Source: Candidatus Dojkabacteria bacterium (GTDB lineage: Bacteria > Patescibacteriota > Dojkabacteria > SC72). From it: a stretch of 32,020 bases of DNA. The notes beneath the pieces are model-generated. The model saw only the letters and a program-made list of their open reading frames with translations, was not told the DNA's origin and searched no databases. Made by a program: the position numbers and the translations under genes. The stretch lies in contig JAQWFF010000003.1 of the NCBI GenBank assembly GCA_028704525.1, positions 1 to 32,020 of the forward strand. The letters are read 5' to 3'. Below are positions 3,911 through 26,287 of the stretch, piece by piece; position 1 is the stretch's first letter; every line of letters begins with the position of its first letter.

Positions 3911-6900
3911 ATGAAGATATCTAAGAATACATTAATAATAGGGGCATCTATACTAGCGGTAGTTGGTGGTGTTGCTGGATATTATCTCCTTACACAGGAT
4001 GAACCAGAGACATTAGGATGGATGAATAGTAGCTGGTTATATAGAAAGGCAATAACGGTTAGTAATAGTGGGAGTGAACTATTAAATGAGGATGTACTAG
4101 TAACTATAGATACAGAATCCCTTATAGATGCATCTAAACTACAGAGTGATTGTGATGACCTAAGATTTACAGATAGTGATGAAACAACAGCTCTAGACTA
4201 TTGGGTAGAGGGTGGATGTGATACAAGTACAACAAGGGTATGGGTACAGATACCAACATTACCTAATGGAGGAAAGACTATATATGTGTATTATGCAAAT
4301 CCAAGTGCAACTAATTCTGAGGAGACATGGTCAGAGTATTTCATAGCATTAAATGATGAGGCATGTCCAGCAGGATGGACAAGAGATAGCAACTTTGATG
4401 ATGCGTTTCCACTGGCATCTGCAACAGCCAAAACCGCTGGGGGTTCAAACACTCATTCACATACAGCATCTGGAAGTACTAGTAGTCAGAATCAAGGATG
4501 TCAAAATGGAACTGGACAACAGTATGGATATGGTTCACATGGCTGGTCTTCAAGTGTAACAAATGATACAAAATATCCGCCATATTTAGATATGGTATTT
4601 TGTAAAAATAGTGATTACAATCCGTATGCTGGGATGATTACTCTCTTTGACGCTACAGTTCCAAGTGGATGGACAAGATATAGTGGACTAGATTCATACT
4701 TCACAAGAGGAGCAGCTTCATACAGTGCTACCCCAGGAGGGGCAACTACACATACACACTCATTTTCTGGTGGTACAACAGGTGGCTCAGGATCAGGAGC
4801 CACATCAGGATTATGCTTCACCACAAGCTGTGTACTTTCTCATTCTCATTCATTTTCAATAACCTCTGTTGGGAGTGGAAGTAGCTTGCCTCAATATAAA
4901 ACAGTTATATGGGGAGAAGCAGATGGAGCAACAGTATTAGATGAAGTCATATTTATGGTAACAGGAAATCCTCCACTTGGATGGAGTACACAATCTACAT
5001 TAAATGGATACTACCTTTATGGCTCATCTTCATATAACAGCTCTGGTGGAGATGCAAGTCATACTCATTCAGTATCGGGAAGTACAGGTTCTACGTCTAG
5101 CTCTAACTGTTGCGGGAATGCCCCACTTAACTACGGCTTTGGGACAAGCGCTTCACATTCTATAGCTGCAACTACAAGCAGTGCTGCAAACAATACACCT
5201 GCATACTACTCTGTCATAATTAGTAAGAGAAAAGCATCTGTTAGTACATCTTTAGGAACAGAAGAATCCCAGAATACAGCCCCTGATGCACCATCTGCTC
5301 CATATTGTGAAAGTACAACTAATCCAACATTGGTAACAGATAGTACTCCTGAGTTTAGTGCAGTGTTTACAGATGATGATTCTTCTGATACAGGTAACTA
5401 TTATCAGATACAAGTTAATACAGCTTCTGATTTTAGTGGTACTTCTATGTGGGATAGTACAAAAACTGCATTTGGTACTCCCATTACTAATGGGGCCAGA
5501 TGTTCTGATATATCATATGATGGTTCTACATTATCTTGGGGAACTCAATACTATTGGAGGATAAAGTTCTGGGATAACCAATCAATGAATAATGAAAGTG
5601 ATTGGTCTACTACTCAAAACTTCACTATGAACGCAATACCAACCTCTACAGCTCCATACTGTGAACAAACAACTAACCCAACAAAGGTAACGGATAGTAC
5701 ACCTGAGTTTAGTTCGGTATTTACAGATACAGACTCAGGAGACACAGGAAATTCTTACGAGATAGAGGTTAATACAACATCTGCATTTGATGGTACAAGT
5801 ATGTGGGATACAGGGAAGACATCCATTGCATCACCTCTTACAAGTACAAGCAGATCTATTGATTACTCATATGCAGGAACAGCCCTAGATGCTGGGGTTA
5901 CATACTACTGGAGAATGAGATTCTGGGATGTTAATGATGAAGAAACACCATATAGTACAACAGGATTAGTTGGACAATGGGATTTTAATGAAACAAGTGG
6001 TACCACAGCAGATAACGAAGGCAGTTGTGGTTCATTATGTGATGGGACATTAACAAATATGGTAACAACTGGACAGGATGATTCATCAAGTAGTGGATGG
6101 ACATATGATAAAAGGAAATGGGGTGCAGGAGCAGTTATGTTTGATGGTGGTAATGATAAAATAACTATGGGAGATAATACTAATTTAGAGTTAGCAAACA
6201 TTACTGTTGCAGCTTGGATTAAAGTCTCATCATCAACTGGATGGACAAGAATAGCTGGGAAATACAGTAGTACTAATAAATTAGGATATAATCTTACAAT
6301 AGATGGAGCAAATAATGGGAAACCTGTTTTCCAAGCAGGAAATAGTTCAACAACTGCTAGTGCAAGTTTAGTAGGGACTTCAGTCTACGATGATGAATGG
6401 CACTATATAGTTGGAACAGCAGATGGAACCGATGTAAATATATATATGGATGGTGAATTTCTAAGTTCTACTTCTTTTGCAAGCTCTATCTCTTATGGTA
6501 CAGAGGTTTTCTATATCGGTTCTAATGGTACTACAGCAGTTAATGGAACTGTAGACCATGTAACAATTTATTCTCGTGCTCTTTCTGAGGAAGAAATCCT
6601 TACAAACTATCAAACAGGAGCAGGAGGAGGGTCTTGGTCAACAACATCAACCTTTGTTATGTCAGGGCCCCCATCAAAACCAACCAATCTTAAAACAGAC
6701 GCTCAAACAAACCCAACACAACTAGCTAGTGCACACCCTATGTTCTCTGCTACATACTCTGATCCAAACAGTGATGACTCATCAGCATATGAGATAGAGG
6801 TTAATGCTGCTTCTAACTTCTTGGGTACTGTAATGTGGGATACTGGGAAAACAGCAAAAACTATAACAAGTGGTACAACAGGAGATATAGTAAATTACGC

Positions 6901-7063
6901 AGGAACACCCCTCTCTAACTCCACAACCACATACTACTGGAGAATACGATTCTGGGATACAGATGATACTGAAAGCGAATGGTCTGACACAGCCCAGTTC
7001 TCAGACTTCTATCCCTCTTTCAAATTCCAAGGCATAGGTATGGAAGGATTAAAGATAAACTAG
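3911..7063 (+). CDS. Large N-terminally anchored surface protein: DUF2341-like domain, three HTHS collar-like repeats, Fn3-like repeats and a LamG-like (concanavalin-fold) domain
   Basis: N-terminal TM (NTLIIGASILAVVGGVAGYYLL); WLYRKAITVSNSG...IYVYYANPSAT typical of DUF2341; GLVGQWDFNETSGTTADNEG...HYIVGTADGTDVNIYMDGEFL...YSRALSEEEI typical of LamG; repeated TNPT.VTDSTPEFSAVF...YYWR..FWD. Confidence 0.85.
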   Translation: MKISKNTLIIGASILAVVGGVAGYYLLTQDEPETLGWMNSSWLYRKAITVSNSGSELLNEDVLVTIDTESLIDASKLQSDCDDLRFTDSDETTALDYWVEGGCDTSTTRVWVQIPTLPNGGKTIYVYYANPSATNSEETWSEYFIALNDEACPAGWTRDSNFDDAFPLASATAKTAGGSNTHSHTASGSTSSQNQGCQNGTGQQYGYGSHGWSSSVTNDTKYPPYLDMVFCKNSDYNPYAGMITLFDATVPSGWTRYSGLDSYFTRGAASYSATPGGATTHTHSFSGGTTGGSGSGATSGLCFTTSCVLSHSHSFSITSVGSGSSLPQYKTVIWGEADGATVLDEVIFMVTGNPPLGWSTQSTLNGYYLYGSSSYNSSGGDASHTHSVSGSTGSTSSSNCCGNAPLNYGFGTSASHSIAATTSSAANNTPAYYSVIISKRKASVSTSLGTEESQNTAPDAPSAPYCESTTNPTLVTDSTPEFSAVFTDDDSSDTGNYYQIQVNTASDFSGTSMWDSTKTAFGTPITNGARCSDISYDGSTLSWGTQYYWRIKFWDNQSMNNESDWSTTQNFTMNAIPTSTAPYCEQTTNPTKVTDSTPEFSSVFTDTDSGDTGNSYEIEVNTTSAFDGTSMWDTGKTSIASPLTSTSRSIDYSYAGTALDAGVTYYWRMRFWDVNDEETPYSTTGLVGQWDFNETSGTTADNEGSCGSLCDGTLTNMVTTGQDDSSSSGWTYDKRKWGAGAVMFDGGNDKITMGDNTNLELANITVAAWIKVSSSTGWTRIAGKYSSTNKLGYNLTIDGANNGKPVFQAGNSSTTASASLVGTSVYDDEWHYIVGTADGTDVNIYMDGEFLSSTSFASSISYGTEVFYIGSNGTTAVNGTVDHVTIYSRALSEEEILTNYQTGAGGGSWSTTSTFVMSGPPSKPTNLKTDAQTNPTQLASAHPMFSATYSDPNSDDSSAYEIEVNAASNFLGTVMWDTGKTAKTITSGTTGDIVNYAGTPLSNSTTTYYWRIRFWDTDDTESEWSDTAQFSDFYPSFKFQGIGMEGLKIN
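4341..5235 (+). repeat. Three tandem protein-level repeats (about 95-100 aa) with P.GW...S.L..YF..G...Y...GG..THTHS.SG.T pattern
   Basis: CPAGWTRDSNFDDAFPLASATAKTAGGSNTHSHTASGST; VPSGWTRYSGLDSYFTRGAASYSATPGGATTHTHSFSGGT; PPLGWSTQSTLNGYYLYGSSSYNSSGGDASHTHSVSGST. Boundaries approximate. Confidence 0.8.
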
Positions 7064-17478: not shown

Positions 17479-18171
17479 ATGAGAAAGATGCCTAGTAAGG
17501 ACATTCTAGTGTTATTATCCTCTAATGAAATAAAAGAACAGATACGAAATATATTATTAGGGATTTCAACCTTTAATATTCATTTCCAAAAAATCCTAGA
17601 TCATGCAATAAATGATATCCAATCACATTACTATAAAGTCATTGTAATAGATGAAGATTTTAGAAAAGATAGTAAATTTAACACTTTAATGTCTGTACTA
17701 TTTTCTGAATATTTAAATAGTGAGACAGTAATATTACTCAATGATAATTCTTTTGATAATCTTCAGTTCTATCTAAGATATAATATTACCTGTTTGATTG
17801 AGAAACCTATTAAAAAGGATTTACTGAAAGCTATAATCTTTTGTAAATTAGAACTGTTAGAACAGTATAAAAATAAATTAATACAGAATTACGGGATATC
17901 TTTATATCCACATCTTAATTACCTTATTGTAAAAGGATGTAAAATATATTTATCTAAAAGCCAGCTTGATATAATATTCTTTTTATTAACTAATAATAAT
18001 CCCTGTGAGAGTAGGAGTATTTTAAAATATTTGTCATACTGTAGAGATAGAGATATAACACAATCATATTTATCTGCGAATATAGCACAACTTAAAAAGA
18101 AATTTACAAAACATACAGGATTGGTAGTAATAAAAAATAGAAAAGGATTCGGATATTATATCTCAATCTAG
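17479..18171 (+). CDS. OmpR-family-like regulator: degenerate receiver domain plus winged-helix DNA-binding domain (start may be 17488)
   Basis: YYKVIVIDEDFRK, TVILLNDNS, IEKPIKKDLL in the N-half; winged-helix SKSQLDIIFFLLTNN...LSANIAQLKKKFTKHTGLVVIKNRKGFGYYISI. No histidine kinase in the window. Confidence 0.75.
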   Translation: MRKMPSKDILVLLSSNEIKEQIRNILLGISTFNIHFQKILDHAINDIQSHYYKVIVIDEDFRKDSKFNTLMSVLFSEYLNSETVILLNDNSFDNLQFYLRYNITCLIEKPIKKDLLKAIIFCKLELLEQYKNKLIQNYGISLYPHLNYLIVKGCKIYLSKSQLDIIFFLLTNNNPCESRSILKYLSYCRDRDITQSYLSANIAQLKKKFTKHTGLVVIKNRKGFGYYISI

Positions 18172-20753
18172 GTTTTCTTCTTCCATTCTACTATCTTATT
18201 TAAAGCCTCAAGTGGTGTCATATTATCTATATCTATACTAATTATCTCCTTCTCTATCTCAGAGCTCTTTACAGTAAATAAAGGATACTGAGACACTACG
18301 CTCTTTAATTTCTCCTTCTTTGTATCGGGGATATCTGTATCCCGCAACTTATGGTTACTACTAAACATATTCTCTTGTTCAAAGCTTTCTAATATCTCGC
18401 TAGCACGCTCTAACATTTCGGTTGGTAATCCTGCCATCTTGGCTACATATATACCATAACTTCTATCTGTTCCCCCTTGTACTATCTTTCTAAGAAATAT
18501 AACTGTACCTTTCTCTAAATCTTCCTCTACAAGTACATTATAATTTTTTACACTTCCTGGGAATTTATCCGAGAGTTTTAATAATTCATGATAGTGGGTA
18601 GCAAATATTGTTCTTGCTTTTATCTTATTTACAATATACTCTGCCAATGCCCAAGCGATACTAACACCATCATATGTACTTGTCCCCCTCCCAACTTCAT
18701 CTAATATTATTAAGCTGTATTTTGTAGCATTATTTATAATATTAGCTGCCTCCTCCATCTCAACCATAAAAGTACTTCTTCCTCTAGACAGATCATCAGA
18801 AGCACCAACTCTAGTAAATATCCTATCTACTATTGATATAACAGCACTTTTTGCAGGAACAAAAGAACCTATCTGTGCAAGAAGAATTATAGTAGCAACC
18901 TGCCTAATATAAGTCGACTTCCCTGACATATTAGGACCTGTAAGTATTGATACAAGATTATCTTTGGTATCAATATGTGTATCATTAGAAATAAATTCTT
19001 CCTGACCTAAACTTTCTACAAGAGGATGTCTCCCTGAAGATATTTCTATAATCCCATCTTTTTCCCCAACCTCATACACTGTTGGTCTACAATAGTTATT
19101 CTCTATGGCTAAATATGCCAAACCAGAAAGAACATCTATCTGTGATATATATGATGCATATTTCTGTAATATATTTAAGAATGGTATAAATGTATCTCTA
19201 AAATTAGTAAATATCTCGTACTCTAAGGTACAAACCTTTTCTTGGGCATTTAGTATAATATTTTCCTTCTCCTTTAATTCCTCTGTTATATATCTCTCAC
19301 AATTTACAAGTGTCTGTTTTCTGATATATCTTTCTGGCACCTTATCTTTATGTGTATTGGTTACTTCTATGTAATATCCAAATACTTTATTAAAACCAAT
19401 CTTAAGAGACGAGATACCTGTTTTAGCTTTCTCCATCTCTTCAAATTCTTTTATCCATGATTTACTATCCTTTGTTATCATTCTCAATTGGTCTACCTCT
19501 TTGTTATAACCACTTCGAATTATCTCTCCCTCTGTCAGTGAAAGAGAAGGGGTATCAGAGATACATTTATCTATTTTTGAAATTAACTCCTTAATTAACT
19601 TCCTATCCACTTCATATTTAATATCTAATTCTTTTTTAAATATTCCAACTATATCCAATAGATTTCCGAGAGTTGAAGAGAGAGAATTAAAATCCCTTGC
19701 ATTAACTCTATTTAGACCAATCTTCCCTATGATTCTTTCTAAATCAGATGTATTATCTAATTTCTCCCTTATCTCTTCTAAAACCTTTTTCTTCTTAAAT
19801 AGTGCATTTACAATACCTAATCTCTGATCAATCGTTTTTTTCTCTACTAGTGGATTAATTATCCAAGAGTACAAGAGTCTTTTTCCCATAGGTGTTAATG
19901 TCCTGTCTATTACAGAGAGAAGTGAATTTGATATATCACCAGTATACGCATTGCTGACTAATTCTAAATTACGTATTGTTGCTCTATCCAATACCATAGT
20001 TCCACTTAAAGAAACTTTCTGAGGCTTCTGAATATGCTTTGGGATCATAAGTTGAGTCTCTTGTATATACTCAAGAATCATTGCAACTGATACAACATCT
20101 AATGAATTCCTTTCTATATCTAATGCTTCAACATTCTTTATCTCAAAAAATTCTTTACACACTGTATTACAATACTCTTTGCTTTTTAAACCTTTTGGAA
20201 GAAGATGTACTGGCCTATCTGATATGTTAAATCCATCTTCACCCTCTATTATTAAGACCTCTTCTGGTTCATATGATGTTAGAACTTGTTTTACACTTCC
20301 TTTTGATACAAGTATAAATTGACCAGTTGATATATCACAAATCGATATTGAGATACTTCCTTTCTCTTTATATATGGCTATTAAATACTGATTCTTTATA
20401 CTACTTGCCTTGTCTCCATCAAGTGTTCCTGGTGTTACAACTCTTGTTATCCCTCGTTTTACGATACCCTTTGCGAACTTAGGGTCTTCTAATTGATCAA
20501 CTACGACAACACAATACCCTGCCTGTATTAGCTTTGGGAGGTATAGGTCTATTGCCTTATGTGGAAATCCGGCAAGAGGGGTAGGGTTATGTTTTTTATC
20601 TCTTGTTGTTAATGTTATATTTAGAACCTTAGATGCAATCTTCGCATCATCACCAAAAGTCTCAAAGAAATCTCCCATTCTGTAAAGGAGTATTTTATCT
20701 GGGTACTGTTTCTTAAAACCCAAATATTGTCTCATCATTGGAGTATCTTCCAT
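18168..20753 (-). CDS. mutS: DNA mismatch repair protein MutS
   Basis: YPDKILLYRMGDFFETFGDDA, LTGPNMSGKSTYIRQVATI, DEVGRGTSTYDGVSIAWALAEY, FATHYHELLKL. Confidence 0.98.
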   Translation of the reverse strand: MEDTPMMRQYLGFKKQYPDKILLYRMGDFFETFGDDAKIASKVLNITLTTRDKKHNPTPLAGFPHKAIDLYLPKLIQAGYCVVVVDQLEDPKFAKGIVKRGITRVVTPGTLDGDKASSIKNQYLIAIYKEKGSISISICDISTGQFILVSKGSVKQVLTSYEPEEVLIIEGEDGFNISDRPVHLLPKGLKSKEYCNTVCKEFFEIKNVEALDIERNSLDVVSVAMILEYIQETQLMIPKHIQKPQKVSLSGTMVLDRATIRNLELVSNAYTGDISNSLLSVIDRTLTPMGKRLLYSWIINPLVEKKTIDQRLGIVNALFKKKKVLEEIREKLDNTSDLERIIGKIGLNRVNARDFNSLSSTLGNLLDIVGIFKKELDIKYEVDRKLIKELISKIDKCISDTPSLSLTEGEIIRSGYNKEVDQLRMITKDSKSWIKEFEEMEKAKTGISSLKIGFNKVFGYYIEVTNTHKDKVPERYIRKQTLVNCERYITEELKEKENIILNAQEKVCTLEYEIFTNFRDTFIPFLNILQKYASYISQIDVLSGLAYLAIENNYCRPTVYEVGEKDGIIEISSGRHPLVESLGQEEFISNDTHIDTKDNLVSILTGPNMSGKSTYIRQVATIILLAQIGSFVPAKSAVISIVDRIFTRVGASDDLSRGRSTFMVEMEEAANIINNATKYSLIILDEVGRGTSTYDGVSIAWALAEYIVNKIKARTIFATHYHELLKLSDKFPGSVKNYNVLVEEDLEKGTVIFLRKIVQGGTDRSYGIYVAKMAGLPTEMLERASEILESFEQENMFSSNHKLRDTDIPDTKKEKLKSVVSQYPLFTVKSSEIEKEIISIDIDNMTPLEALNKIVEWKKKT

Positions 20754-20791: not shown

Positions 20792-23317
20792 TTACTTTGA
20801 GAGTATTAATTTGCTTTCTTCCTCGTAAACAACATTTCTTGCTTCTTTAATATCTTTTGCAAAAACTGATATCCCATAAACTCCAACCTCTACACAATAT
20901 TTGATAAGAGGTTTACTATTCTCTGCTACTACAATAACTTTTGTATCACACCTTTTTACTTCTTCTAATACACTCTCTACTATCTTGAATATACTATTTC
21001 TATTTAAATCATACTTCGCATTTTTTGCTCTAATATCTATTCCCTGTACCTGCCTTGCTATTAATGGCATGTTAAGAATTAAACCATCTATTTTAGTATC
21101 TACAATATCGTCTGCTAGGATAATTTCTGCTGGGTTATCTAGTATTGCATATATTTTAAAGGAAGATGTCCTCTTTAGTTTCTCACCTAAAAGAATTCTT
21201 TTGAACTCTTTCATAATATCTTCATTCATAGGACAATGAAGAGCAAGTGATACATTTCTTTTCTTATATACCGTTCTTATTCTCTTTATAATTCTTAATA
21301 CTCTTCTTAATATCTCGATATTATTAACATATCTCACACCTCCATAGACTTCATTTGAAAGCGTTGGGTTCTCATATTCCTTTCCACCTGTTAATGCCTT
21401 AAATTCTGCAACCATACCAGAACCAATAGAGAGAATGACCTCTTCTCCCTGTGCTAACTCTACATATTCCAAAACTTTCTTTGATATATCAGAGGAGTAG
21501 TCTACAAATTTCTTCTTATCTACATATGAGAGTATATGCCTTCCATCTTCGAGCATAATTCTATCTAGATCTATATATACTATTCCATTTGAATCTCCTA
21601 TGTATTCGAACAATTCTTTTGGTTTTAAATCTGCCATACAAAATATCTTGGTAGCTGATGGTGGGAGATTTATATCTCTAGGAATATTTAATTCATTTTC
21701 TTCTTTTACTACGATAACCTCTTCTTTCTTATTAAGTAGGTCAATTCCTCCAACTTTATCCTCTCCATATGCTTCTACAACAGGATGTACTTCTTCTTTT
21801 GCATCAACATCTAACTTATATATACTTCCCGTATTACCATCTATCTTTACACTATCTCCATTCTTTAATATATCTGATGCTTTCTGAGTTCCAACTACAG
21901 CAGGTATCTTACATTCTCTACAGAGTATTGCTGTATCACTTGTTAGACCCCCTGTATCCATAATTACACCTCCAGAAGCAATAATCATAGTCTCCATATC
22001 AGATGAATATTTCTTTATTAAGAGAATATCCTCTTTAGTAAATGCATTATCTACTGGGCCATCAACAATTGTTACTTTTCCTTGTGCTGTTCCAAAGCTT
22101 GCTCCTATACCAGAGAGAAGAAGATCACTTGTATCTGTATTAGAATCTTGTATTTTCTCTTTCTTCTGTTTTGCGATTTGTATTAACCTCTCAAATCTTC
22201 CCTCTCTTTTAACCATTTTCTGAGCTTCAGTTACAGCCTGAGAGACAATCTCTCTTTCCCCTCTATATTTTTCTAGGAATCCAACTAATACCTCCCTTAA
22301 TGTTTTCCTAGAAGGATTTATAACACTCGTATCTATCCTGTCTTCTAGATTTGTACTGAATAATGACTTGTTTTGAAGAATCCATACTCTCCCACCTGAT
22401 ATAACCCATTCTACATTCTGAATCTCCCTTGACTTGTTTTCTATGATAAGGGCTATCTTTGATATCTCTTTCATATCTTTATCATTAACTTTCTGTCTGT
22501 GACTCCAATTAGATGATATCTTTATCCTCTCCTCGTTCTTTCCGTTGTTTGCTTTCATTGTTCTAACCTTCATCCATTCTTGAGGAGATATATGTTTTTC
22601 AACAATAGTTAAATCTTTTTTGTTTAGAACATATGTATCTGGAGTTATTTCTCCTAAAGATATAACATCACCTAATCCGAATACAGCTTCTATACTGAGT
22701 TTTGTTTCGTCTTGAGTTATAGGATCTGTTGTAAATACAACACCTGATATTTCTGATTGAACCATTCTTTGTACTACTACGGCAATCTTTACATCTGCTA
22801 AATCTATATTCATTTTTTGAGCGTAGGATACAACATCATCAGTAAACATTGAAGAAAAGACTCTCTTTATAGCATTAAGAAGATCGGGAAATTTTCTAAC
22901 ATTAAGTTGAGTGGCAAATATTCCACTAAAAGAAACTTCTTCTTTCTCTGGAAATATAACAGATGATCTCACAGATACCCAGGCATCTGTAAATCCAGAT
23001 AGTCTAGTATATGCACTTAATATCTCTTCCTGAACATCCTTTGGAAATTCATATTTTAATATTGCATCTTCAACTTCTTCATTCTCAGGATTCTTCCCTT
23101 TATCAAGCAACTTTTTCTCATAGGTATCAAAAGCCCCAAGACAAAAATTTACAAAAGACAATCCCGATATCACAAAGAAATCAGGGACAGGTACATCCAT
23201 ATCTTTAAGTTTAAAGAGACTTAATCCCTTTCTTCCAACCTTATTCTCATTTAAATCTTTTGCTGAAAAATCCTCACAAAAGAAGACATTACTCTTTTTG
23301 ATTTCTGTATTTTCCAT
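20792..23317 (-). CDS. Phosphoenolpyruvate synthase-like protein, probably catalytically degenerate
   Basis: KVGRKGLSLFKLKDMDVPVPDFFVIS, WVSVRSSVIFPEKEEVSFSGIFATQLNV, QRMVQSEISGVVFTTDP, DTGGLTSDTAILCRECKIPAVVGT; the barrel-like C-terminus is recognisable but diverged. Confidence 0.8.
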   Translation of the reverse strand: MENTEIKKSNVFFCEDFSAKDLNENKVGRKGLSLFKLKDMDVPVPDFFVISGLSFVNFCLGAFDTYEKKLLDKGKNPENEEVEDAILKYEFPKDVQEEILSAYTRLSGFTDAWVSVRSSVIFPEKEEVSFSGIFATQLNVRKFPDLLNAIKRVFSSMFTDDVVSYAQKMNIDLADVKIAVVVQRMVQSEISGVVFTTDPITQDETKLSIEAVFGLGDVISLGEITPDTYVLNKKDLTIVEKHISPQEWMKVRTMKANNGKNEERIKISSNWSHRQKVNDKDMKEISKIALIIENKSREIQNVEWVISGGRVWILQNKSLFSTNLEDRIDTSVINPSRKTLREVLVGFLEKYRGEREIVSQAVTEAQKMVKREGRFERLIQIAKQKKEKIQDSNTDTSDLLLSGIGASFGTAQGKVTIVDGPVDNAFTKEDILLIKKYSSDMETMIIASGGVIMDTGGLTSDTAILCRECKIPAVVGTQKASDILKNGDSVKIDGNTGSIYKLDVDAKEEVHPVVEAYGEDKVGGIDLLNKKEEVIVVKEENELNIPRDINLPPSATKIFCMADLKPKELFEYIGDSNGIVYIDLDRIMLEDGRHILSYVDKKKFVDYSSDISKKVLEYVELAQGEEVILSIGSGMVAEFKALTGGKEYENPTLSNEVYGGVRYVNNIEILRRVLRIIKRIRTVYKKRNVSLALHCPMNEDIMKEFKRILLGEKLKRTSSFKIYAILDNPAEIILADDIVDTKIDGLILNMPLIARQVQGIDIRAKNAKYDLNRNSIFKIVESVLEEVKRCDTKVIVVAENSKPLIKYCVEVGVYGISVFAKDIKEARNVVYEEESKLILSK

Positions 23318-23351: not shown

Positions 23352-24515
23352 CTAAACGATACCTTTAGCCTTAAGTTTTTGCAAGTCTATATAGAATTCG
23401 TATATTATCTTTGCTATTACCATCAGAGGGACAGCTATTAGTGCACCAAAGACTCCAAAAAGGAGAAGAGATATAACAACTCCCAACATTACAATTACTG
23501 GCCTAATACCTACAGCATTGCCCATTATCTTTGGAGATATGAAGTTATTCTCTATCTGTTGATATACTATTAAACTAACCAATACTATAACAGCACTAAC
23601 TGGTCCTACAGTAATTAACGCAACTATTGCTATTGGTATCATAGCTATCGTAGCACCTATATTGGGCACAGAGTTCATTAAAGCAACAAATACAGCAAGT
23701 GGGAGAGCAAACGGGACTTTAAGAATAGTTAACACTATTCCTGCTACAACTCCTGCTATTGTACTAATAGTTGCTTGACCAAGTATCCATCTCCCTAATT
23801 TTCTCTGTACATCAACAAATAATTTCTTCACTCTCTGTCGTTTCTGATCAGATGGTATTCTAATCAATCCAAATTCCAAAAGTGAATCATACTCTAAAAC
23901 AAGATACATAGAGAAAACTATAGATGTAATAACTAAGGTTGTAGTGCTAAGGAATCCTGATACTACATCAGTTAGGTTCTTTATACTATCCGCAGTAGGA
24001 ATAGATTTGAGAAAATCTGTAAGCATAGTAGATACATTTGGTGATGCTAATATATCAGATATAACTTTTATGTTCTTCAAATCTTCTATCGTTCTAGTTA
24101 TCCAGTTAGGAAGAGCAACTACTAAATCAGACAATTGGTTTGTAAATGGAATTATTACTATAGAAAAAAGACCAAAAAACACTATTAAGAAAAGTATATA
24201 CGATATCGCCACAGCCCATCCTTTTGATATCTTTTTTGAAACCATCCAATCAACAGAGGGTTTTATAGCAGACATGAATATAAAGCCTAGAAATAAAAAT
24301 ATTAAGACAGTAGATAACTGCTTCCACATAAATATAACTGCAAGTAGAAGAAGAACGAGTAGTACTAATTTCCAAGAGAATTCTATGACAAACACAGGCT
24401 TATCTTCTTTCCTTCTTTGGTATTTTATAACCTCACTTAATTCTTCAAGATGCTTACTTTCTTGCTGTTCTATTATTTTTGATTTATTACTCTTAAAAGA
24501 GAATATCTTCCCCAT
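23352..24515 (-). CDS. AI-2E family (PerM/UPF0118) membrane permease
   Basis: Multiple TM segments; IVYQQIENNFISPKIMGNAVGIRPVIVMLGVVISLLLFGVFGALIAVPLMVIAKIIYEFY signature. Confidence 0.9.
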   Translation of the reverse strand: MGKIFSFKSNKSKIIEQQESKHLEELSEVIKYQRRKEDKPVFVIEFSWKLVLLVLLLLAVIFMWKQLSTVLIFLFLGFIFMSAIKPSVDWMVSKKISKGWAVAISYILFLIVFFGLFSIVIIPFTNQLSDLVVALPNWITRTIEDLKNIKVISDILASPNVSTMLTDFLKSIPTADSIKNLTDVVSGFLSTTTLVITSIVFSMYLVLEYDSLLEFGLIRIPSDQKRQRVKKLFVDVQRKLGRWILGQATISTIAGVVAGIVLTILKVPFALPLAVFVALMNSVPNIGATIAMIPIAIVALITVGPVSAVIVLVSLIVYQQIENNFISPKIMGNAVGIRPVIVMLGVVISLLLFGVFGALIAVPLMVIAKIIYEFYIDLQKLKAKGIV

Positions 24516-24587: not shown

Positions 24588-25499
24588 TTAACTTCTTTTC
24601 TTATTAATCATATATATTGTACTTCCTGATGCACCAAGTAGGGCAACTATGCCAAATATAATCATAAGAACATTACCTAACATAATAATTTTTGCATTAT
24701 CTAAGTTACCATCAGCTACCGGTATTGTAGAATCAGAAACAGCATCTCCATTTACACTACTACTAGATGAATAAATAGTTTTAATTTTTTTGTCTGATAC
24801 AATCTCATTCCCTGCTTCATCTTTTATAACTACACTAAATATATTAGAACCTTCATCTAATCTAATACCAGAAACCTTGAAATTCCCATTCTCATCACAT
24901 ACACCACCAAATACATCTGTACCTCTCTTTATACTAATTGTTGCATTCTTCTCAATCTTTCCTGTAACTGTAAATGTCTTGGTACCAACCTCTATTGGAT
25001 ATTTAATATCAGAAAGTACAGGTGCTGTTCTATCTATTATAATTGTATCTCCTGTTGTCTGTGGTGATATATATCTTTTTGGGAAACCTTTTACACCAGC
25101 TACAGATATAATATACTGACCCTCTTCTATAGGAGTAATATACTCATAGCTACCATCTTTGCTCACATTAACCCTTGCAACTTCCTGACCATTTATATAT
25201 ACGAAAACCTTCTCGTACTCTATTGCTGACCCCTTAATTGTAACCAACTCTTCATTTGTAATATCCTTTAATCCAATAATAACTGGTGGTTGATATTCTG
25301 CATTTAACTCTGGATTTCTGTTATATCTAATAAAAGAATATATACCAAACGATATTAATATAATTCCAAATAGGATAAAGATAGAACCAACAATTCTTGA
25401 TATTCTTTCCTGATCTTGAGGATTTTTAACCTCAATCTTTGCAACCATTGAATCTTTCTTAATATTTTGAGCAGTAGATTTAGCTTTCTTTTTTGCCAC
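24588..25499 (-). CDS. Two-TM exported protein with Ig-like/Big-like modules (GTG start)
   Basis: GTG at 25499-25497 read on minus; N-terminal TM SIFILFGIILISFGIYSF; NENGNFKVSG-like and INGQEVARVNVSKDGSYEY Ig-like segments; C-terminal TM IIMLGNVLMIIFGIVALLGASGSTIYMINKKRS. Confidence 0.75.
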   Translation of the reverse strand: MAKKKAKSTAQNIKKDSMVAKIEVKNPQDQERISRIVGSIFILFGIILISFGIYSFIRYNRNPELNAEYQPPVIIGLKDITNEELVTIKGSAIEYEKVFVYINGQEVARVNVSKDGSYEYITPIEEGQYIISVAGVKGFPKRYISPQTTGDTIIIDRTAPVLSDIKYPIEVGTKTFTVTGKIEKNATISIKRGTDVFGGVCDENGNFKVSGIRLDEGSNIFSVVIKDEAGNEIVSDKKIKTIYSSSSSVNGDAVSDSTIPVADGNLDNAKIIMLGNVLMIIFGIVALLGASGSTIYMINKKRS

Positions 25500-25600: not shown

Positions 25601-26287
25601 ATGAAGAAGATAATAAAAATATTAACAACCCTCTTTCTTGTACTATTGGTAATTATTCCTGTCTTTTTTCTCTTCGTATACCCTCAATATAACAATATAT
25701 TAATAAATAGGAGTAAGTTTGATATATACAAAATAACAAAAGATACTGCTATAAAGATATTAACAAAAATATCTCCAAGCCAAGATCTATACGCACAAGA
25801 GGTACTTGCTGCATCCTCTATGGAAGAAACTCTCTCTAAAGAGAATATTAATCTTTCAGAAAAAATACTCGAAGAAAACAATACAAGAGTCATTATAAAA
25901 AGTATAAATATAGAGGGTAGAATATCACAGGGAGAAACAGCAAACAGTATGAATGAAGGATTCTGGCATTTCCCGATATCTGCATACCCTGGAGAGTTAG
26001 GGAATATGGTAATCATAGGACATAGATACCAATTCCTCCCTCCAGCCAAAAACACATTCTTCAACTTAGACAAAATAATGATTGGCGACGAGATAAAGGT
26101 TATAGATAAATACAACGAATTTACATATATAGTTACAGGAAAAAAGGATGTTAATCCAAATGATATATCTGTACTTCAACCAACCAATGACTACAGACTT
26201 ACCCTTATAACATGTACACCTTTATGGACACATGAGAAACGTCTTGTTATAACGGCTAAACTAGACAAGTTATATAAAAAAGTATAG
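25601..26287 (+). CDS. Sortase family transpeptidase
   Basis: N-terminal TM; GNMVIIGHRY (catalytic His), RLTLITCTPLWTHEKRLVITAKL (Cys and Arg). Confidence 0.92.
   Translation: MKKIIKILTTLFLVLLVIIPVFFLFVYPQYNNILINRSKFDIYKITKDTAIKILTKISPSQDLYAQEVLAASSMEETLSKENINLSEKILEENNTRVIIKSINIEGRISQGETANSMNEGFWHFPISAYPGELGNMVIIGHRYQFLPPAKNTFFNLDKIMIGDEIKVIDKYNEFTYIVTGKKDVNPNDISVLQPTNDYRLTLITCTPLWTHEKRLVITAKLDKLYKKV

What the first reader, a model, noticed from the sequence alone, without database searches (positions are those of the whole stretch)
20792..23317. PEP synthase homolog that has apparently lost its catalytic residues
The swivelling-domain signature expected as TSHAAI...GIPAVVG reads GGLTSDTAILCRECKIPAVVG (about 21890-21960), replacing the phospho-accepting His with Asp. 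In the barrel domain the usual R-x-x-D-F-K...ENPMLGWRGA pattern reads LSIGSGMVAEFKALTGGKEYENPTLSNEVYGGVRY; SIGTNDLTQ reads LILNMPLIARQVQGID; the CGQ-PS segment reads VAENSKP with no Cys. The N-terminal nucleotide-binding half looks better preserved (VRSS, ISGVVFTTDP, GLGDVISLGEITPDTYV). This suggests a repurposed regulatory or structural protein, or different chemistry.
Basis: partly seen in the sequence, partly recalled or inferred. Interest (0 to 1): 0.6.

Follow-up and report, generated by a model that had tools for sequence, protein, structure and literature searches.

The report
Conserved PEP-synthase-like protein lacking catalytic residues
Tiny-genome bacteria of the Dojkabacteria (WS6) group keep, under strong selection, a relative of the sugar-metabolism enzyme PEP synthase that still has its ATP-binding half but has swapped its key histidine for aspartate and lost its other PEP-handling residues, so it is probably an ATP-driven protein with a new, unknown job rather than the enzyme it is annotated as.

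Summary
ORF 20792-23317 (-) encodes a full-length three-domain PEP synthase homologue. The phospho-accepting His of the swivelling domain is Asp461, and none of the PEP/pyruvate-site motifs is left in the barrel. The ATP-grasp half keeps Lys30, Arg117, Thr136, Glu303 and Gln315. The host is a Candidatus Dojkabacteria (WS6) MAG. Orthologues occur in 40 of 42 genomes of the order. One well-supported clade spans 7 families and has Asp at this position in 25 of 28 sequences (Asn 2, Glu 1). Twenty of 20 PpsAs sampled elsewhere in the phylum keep every catalytic residue. dN/dS is mostly 0.03-0.12 in all three domains, so this is a conserved pseudoenzyme, not a decaying gene. Some relatives have dropped the barrel entirely (440-447 aa), which leaves ATP-grasp plus swivel(Asp) as the core. 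The gene is linked to an AI-2E-family transporter gene and to mutS across families. The host has pyruvate kinase but no recognisable intact PpsA, PPDK or PTS Enzyme I, and no PpsR. Best reading: an ATP-operated conformational switch or scaffold, not a PEP synthase; the identity is firm, the mechanism inferred. A carrier phosphorylated on Asp is not excluded.

The parts
20792..23317 (-). Pseudo-PEP synthase gene, 841 aa
   Evidence: ORF; full-length homology to PEP synthase models; orthologues in 40/42 genomes of the order
22358..23293 (-). ATP-grasp domain (residues 9-320); Lys30, Arg117, Thr136, Glu303, Gln315 retained
   Evidence: PPDK_N 1.9e-62; invariant columns; register to RPH-Lm and P. 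furiosus PpsA
21809..22126 (-). Swivelling (mobile) domain, residues 398-503
   Evidence: PEP-utilizers mobile domain 4.9e-17
21935..21937 (-). Asp461 codon, in place of the phospho-accepting His (E. coli H421)
   Evidence: 26 Asp + 1 Glu among 27 family members
21677..21808 (-). Low-confidence, variable linker between swivel and barrel (residues 504-547)
   Evidence: pLDDT mostly below 50 over 504-543
20795..21676 (-). Barrel domain (residues 548-841): eight-strand fold kept, PEP/pyruvate-site residues lost
   Evidence: AF2 model; fold match to PpsA C-terminal structures 9dae and 8a8e; motifs absent
23352..24515 (-). AI-2E family transporter, directly upstream (34-bp gap)
   Evidence: Pfam; same neighbour in 19 of 21 loci
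24588..25499 (-). Ig-like-domain membrane protein, first gene of the co-directional set
   Evidence: Pfam; found in 20 of 21 loci
18168..20753 (-). MutS, directly downstream (38-bp gap)
   Evidence: Pfam; adjacent in 15 of 21 loci and within a few genes in 20 of 21; also next to the homologue in families f10 and f13

Best explanation
A vertically inherited pseudo-PEP synthase of Dojkabacteria. An ancestral PpsA lost its phosphohistidine (His->Asp, once, at the base of the clade) and its PEP/pyruvate site, but kept an ATP-grasp module. Proposed mechanism: ATP binds in the retained site; closing of the ATP-grasp domain creates or removes a docking face for the swivelling domain, where the permanently negative Asp461 stands where phospho-His would stand; the resulting domain movement, without phosphate being carried to PEP, alters contacts made by the swivel and barrel with a partner, so the protein works as an ATP-driven switch or scaffold. 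Shown here: homology, loss and its conservation, retained ATP-site residues, purifying selection, gene linkage. Inferred: that ATP binds, that the swivel moves, that the output is regulatory. Partner unknown; neighbouring gene products (AI-2E transporter, MutS) are only candidates. Separate confidences: not a PEP synthase and conserved for another role, about 0.93; ATP-driven switch/scaffold as the mechanism, about 0.45.
For: Loss of all PEP-handling residues with the ATP site kept. Orthologues in 40/42 genomes and 20/20 genera of the order. One clade, 100/99 support, 28 sequences in 7 families, 25 Asp, 2 Asn, 1 Glu. dN/dS mostly 0.03-0.12 in ATP-grasp, swivel and barrel alike. Eight-stranded barrel still predicted, matching PpsA C-terminal domains (TM by target 0.79-0.80). 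Family f10 has 440- and 447-aa versions that end right after the swivel and still keep ATP-site residues and Asp, so ATP-grasp + swivel is the core. Host has pyruvate kinase but no over-cut-off PEP-utilizers_C domain and no PpsR kinase, so neither PEP synthesis by another copy nor the usual PpsA regulation explains it.
Against: No binding or activity data. The barrel is as constrained as the swivel within the family, so it may hold a ligand and a reaction of its own. Invariant Lys30 (Lys22 in RPH/PPDK, needed for phosphoryl transfer) suggests that phosphate chemistry, not only binding, may persist. Asn at position 461 in two members speaks against a strict need for negative charge. Gene linkage does not identify a partner.
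Confidence: 0.55

Rival explanations
1. A new enzyme: the ATP-grasp domain still performs chemistry, transferring phosphate to Asp461 (an aspartyl phosphate in place of phospho-His) or activating another carboxylate, with the changed barrel binding a different acceptor.
For: The residues that handle ATP phosphates are invariant, including Lys30, Arg117 and Thr136; their RPH counterparts are implicated in the first phosphotransfer step and Lys22Ala is dead (PMC4844700). The position is acidic in 26 of 28. ATP-grasp enzymes commonly form acyl phosphates (own knowledge). The barrel is constrained and keeps its fold.
Against: Asn in two members. Some f10 members lack any second substrate domain. 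PpsA-type transfer attacks the beta-phosphate, not the gamma, so an Asp acceptor needs changed geometry. No pathway context.
Confidence: 0.2
2. A purely structural scaffold: the PpsA fold is kept for oligomerisation or for holding a partner, and ATP is at most a structural ligand.
For: Archaeal PpsA forms large symmetric particles through the C-terminal domain (8a8e and 9dae, 24 chains each). All three domains are constrained although catalysis is lost.
Against: The f10 versions without barrel are still kept. Conservation is highest in the ATP-grasp domain (mean pairwise identity 0.64 v. 0.56 for the barrel) and the ATP-contacting residues are invariant.
Confidence: 0.17
3. Still a PEP synthase with a rearranged active site.
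For: Full-length homology; only PpsA-like gene in the genome.
Against: No invariant Cys; the only invariant His residues are H273 in the ATP-grasp domain and H594, whose counterpart also exists in P. furiosus PpsA. All PEP-site motifs lost, and the barrel itself is missing in some relatives. H->Q in the related HpeH gave no detectable activity (PMC12167813). The host has pyruvate kinase.
Confidence: 0.03
4. A decaying gene on its way out.
For: Loss of catalytic residues in a reduced genome.
Against: Present and almost always open in 12 genera of the family and 20 of the order, low dN/dS in every domain.
Confidence: 0.01
5. A regulatory subunit of an intact PpsA/PPDK paralogue.
For: A few genomes of the order (G023, G033, G040) do carry an intact PpsA/PPDK.
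Against: Nearly all other genomes of the order, including this one, have none.
Confidence: 0.02

Closest known systems
Phosphoenolpyruvate synthase (PpsA; PRK06464/TIGR01418)
   Same: Same three domains in the same order over the whole length; ATP-site residues kept; barrel fold kept
   Different: No phospho-His (Asp461), no PEP/pyruvate-site Arg/Glu/Asn/Cys; scores far below both models' cut-offs
VadK (Rv1127c), a kinase evolved from PPDK that lacks the pyruvate/PEP domain (PMC13400623)
   Same: PpsA/PPDK-fold protein repurposed away from PEP; the barrel-less f10 relatives have the same two-domain architecture
   Different: VadK keeps its catalytic His422 and autophosphorylates; this clade has no His there
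Rifampin phosphotransferase (RPH; PMC4844700) and the HpeHI two-component dikinase (PMC12167813)
   Same: Closely related ATP-grasp domain (K22, R117, T136, E297, Q309 of RPH all matched); swivel mechanism
   Different: Both keep the catalytic His and have an unrelated second substrate domain
Prodigiosin ligases PigC/RedH (NCBIfam NF052631/NF052632)
   Same: Homologous ATP-grasp domain found by model search
   Different: Partial match, far below cut-off; the rest of the protein differs; not studied further here

Membership tests
PEP synthase (PpsA, EC 2.7.9.2) | Score above the curated equivalog cut-off | tested here: not met
   304.6 v. 598 (PRK06464) and 286.6 v. 739.75 bits (TIGR01418)
PEP synthase (PpsA, EC 2.7.9.2) | Catalytic His in GGxT[SC]H | tested here: not met
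   Asp461; 0/28 in the clade v. 24/24 intact PpsA
PEP synthase (PpsA, EC 2.7.9.2) | PEP/pyruvate-site residues in the barrel (R511, R578, R608, E680, N703, C751 in E. coli numbering) | tested here: not met
   D, S, Y, D, P, V in the window protein; motifs absent
PEP synthase (PpsA, EC 2.7.9.2) | ATP-grasp domain with Lys/Arg/Glu/Gln ATP contacts | tested here: met
   K30, R117, E303, Q315 invariant in the 23-row family alignment
PEP synthase (PpsA, EC 2.7.9.2) | Pyruvate + ATP + H2O -> PEP + AMP + Pi activity | not testable with these tools
   needs assay
VadK-like PPDK-derived kinase | ATP-grasp + swivel with autophosphorylating His, no PEP domain | tested here: not met
   Asp in place of His; PEP-domain fold still present in the window protein
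Rifampin phosphotransferase | Swivel at the C-terminus after a rifampin-binding domain, catalytic His | tested here: not met
   Swivel is central and followed by a barrel; no His

The most novel reading that the evidence does not exclude
The clade uses ATP to phosphorylate Asp461 (or another carboxylate), i.e. a PEP-synthase-type swivelling carrier that works through an acyl phosphate instead of a phospho-histidine, reduced in some relatives to a bare ATP-grasp plus Asp-swivel protein acting on a partner protein.
Probability: 0.12. Interest if true: 0.85.

Novelty: new variant of a known kind. Interest (0 to 1): 0.55.

Why it matters
The published repurposed members of the PpsA/PPDK superfamily that I read about here (RPH, HpeHI, VadK) keep the catalytic histidine. 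A lineage-wide replacement of that His by Asp, with the ATP site kept, in genomes that have discarded most of metabolism, points to a role that these cells cannot spare. It is also a concrete annotation warning: a PEP synthase call in these genomes, and the PEP/pyruvate bypass that metabolic reconstructions of CPR bacteria propose where pyruvate kinase is missing (PMC7304191), should not rest on this gene. The set of relatives, from full length to barrel-less, makes the core function directly testable.

Tried and rejected
Pseudogene or sequencing error: rejected by conservation and dN/dS. Active PpsA with moved residues: no candidate residues. Regulator of a paralogous PpsA: no paralogue in most genomes. 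PpsR-type control through the conserved Thr459: PpsR family absent from 42/42 genomes. Giant 24,769-aa frame around a distant homologue in G085: artefact of masked N bases. First genome-contig scan with the single protein found nothing; the alignment query worked. A paper search for a described PEP-synthase pseudoenzyme found none in the held open-access library, which does not prove absence. Whole-chain TM-scores are low (about 0.3) because domain arrangement differs or is not reliable (pTM 0.55), so only single-domain matches are used.

Full report
OBSERVATION. The ORF at 20792-23317 on the minus strand (841 aa) is a full-length PEP synthase homologue: PRK06464 aligns from residue 9 to 839 (E 1.3e-90, 304.6 bits against a cut-off of 598). 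Pfam sees the ATP/AMP-binding domain and the mobile domain but not the C-terminal PEP-binding domain. Aligned to E. coli PpsA, the phospho-accepting H421 is Asp461 (codon 21935-21937), and R511, R578, D581, R608, E680, N703 and C751 are D, S, S, Y, D, P and V. The ATP-site Lys27, Arg127, Glu320 and Gln334 are kept. Against rifampin phosphotransferase the register gives R117=R117, T136=T136, E303=E297 and Q315=Q309; K30 is the counterpart of K27/K22. In RPH, Lys22, Arg117 and Thr136 are implicated in the first phosphotransfer and Glu297 sits at the Mg2+ (PMC4844700).

HOST AND DISTRIBUTION. The genome is a 0.77-Mb MAG. Titles of the closest contigs are Candidatus Dojkabacteria / WS6. The gene is the only match in its genome. 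It is in 30 of 32 genomes of the family (12/12 genera) and 40 of 42 of the order (20/20 genera, five families); the two misses (G015, G021) are assemblies of about 150 and 100 contigs. In the family, 26 sequences have Asp and one has Glu at the His position. In a tree of the ATP-grasp and swivel domains these proteins form one clade (100/99) with homologues of families f10 and f13: 28 rows, 25 Asp, 2 Asn, 1 Glu (the root is drawn at the midpoint). The simplest reading is one His->Asp change and three later Asp->Asn/Glu changes. As control, 20 PpsAs from elsewhere in the phylum keep all listed residues, and four alignment-free motifs are present in 24/24 intact enzymes and 0/28 of this clade. 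So the loss is not a general feature of CPR bacteria.

SELECTION AND STRUCTURE. Pairwise dN/dS in close pairs is mostly 0.03-0.12 in ATP-grasp, swivel and barrel (many dS values are near saturation, so the clearest pairs are L011/L012, L003/L004 and L015/L016; two more distant pairs reach about 0.2 in the swivel). Mean pairwise identity is 0.64, 0.59 and 0.56 for the three domains and 0.30 for the linker between the first two. AlphaFold2 with the 23-row alignment gives mean pLDDT 76.7, pTM 0.55: all three domains fold, the barrel with eight strands, while domain arrangement is not reliable. The barrel matches the C-terminal domains of PpsA structures 9dae and 8a8e (TM by target 0.80 and 0.79). 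The barrel fold is therefore kept while its catalytic residues are gone.

A NATURAL TRUNCATION SERIES. In family f10 the homologues shrink from about 750 aa to 440 and 447 aa. The shortest end directly after the swivel domain, keep the ATP-site residues and the Asp, and in L061 still lie directly upstream of mutS. The barrel is thus dispensable in these; ATP-grasp + Asp-swivel is the common core.

NEIGHBOURHOOD. The gene sits in a co-directional set Ig-domain protein - AI-2E transporter - pseudo-PpsA - MutS with 34- and 38-bp gaps on either side of the pseudo-PpsA gene. The AI-2E gene is directly upstream in 19 of 21 loci and mutS directly downstream in 15 of 21. mutS lies next to the homologue in f10, and both mutS and AI-2E in f13. 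Ancient linkage is shown; a functional link is not.

METABOLIC CONTEXT. The host has pyruvate kinase. No PEP-utilizers_C domain scores over the cut-off in this genome, so no intact PpsA, PPDK or PTS Enzyme I is recognisable; in the family only G023 has an intact one (PPDK-like). The PpsR regulatory kinase is absent from 42/42 genomes. The protein can therefore not be regulating a paralogue in most hosts.

INTERPRETATION. Shown: a lineage-wide conserved homologue without the residues for PEP synthesis. Inferred: ATP binding and an ATP-dependent swivel movement with a fixed negative charge where phospho-His would be, giving a switch or scaffold. Not excluded: phosphate transfer to Asp461 or to another carboxylate. 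Literature precedents for repurposed PpsA/PPDK modules (RPH, HpeHI, VadK) keep the catalytic His, so this clade is a variant of another kind. I found no earlier description in the held library, which lacks most subscription journals.

Noticed in passing
L050-L054, L057, L062, L063, L071 (families f14 and f15 of the same class): Other PpsA-like proteins with Tyr, Arg, Lys or Ile in place of the catalytic His (deleted in L062), outside the Asp clade; apparently separate losses. Seven of eight f15 genomes also lack a pyruvate kinase match.
   Followed up: partly
L060 and L068 (family f16): PpsA-like proteins that keep the His motif but lack the barrel Cys; possible intermediates.
   Followed up: no
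G022:C4:100292-100486: 59-aa piece of a PEP-utilizers_C domain with a stop codon: likely remnant of a lost PPDK/PpsA.
   Followed up: no
families f7, f8, f11 of the class (L072-L076, L079-L082, L085, L086): Very divergent homologues that have lost the swivel motif and, in many, the VRSS ATP-site motif as well; no mutS seen beside them. Orthology not established.
   Followed up: partly
window 3911-7063 and 25601-26287: A 1050-aa protein with DUF2341, LamG-like and three Ig-like domains (possible surface protein), and a sortase gene in the same window.
   Followed up: no
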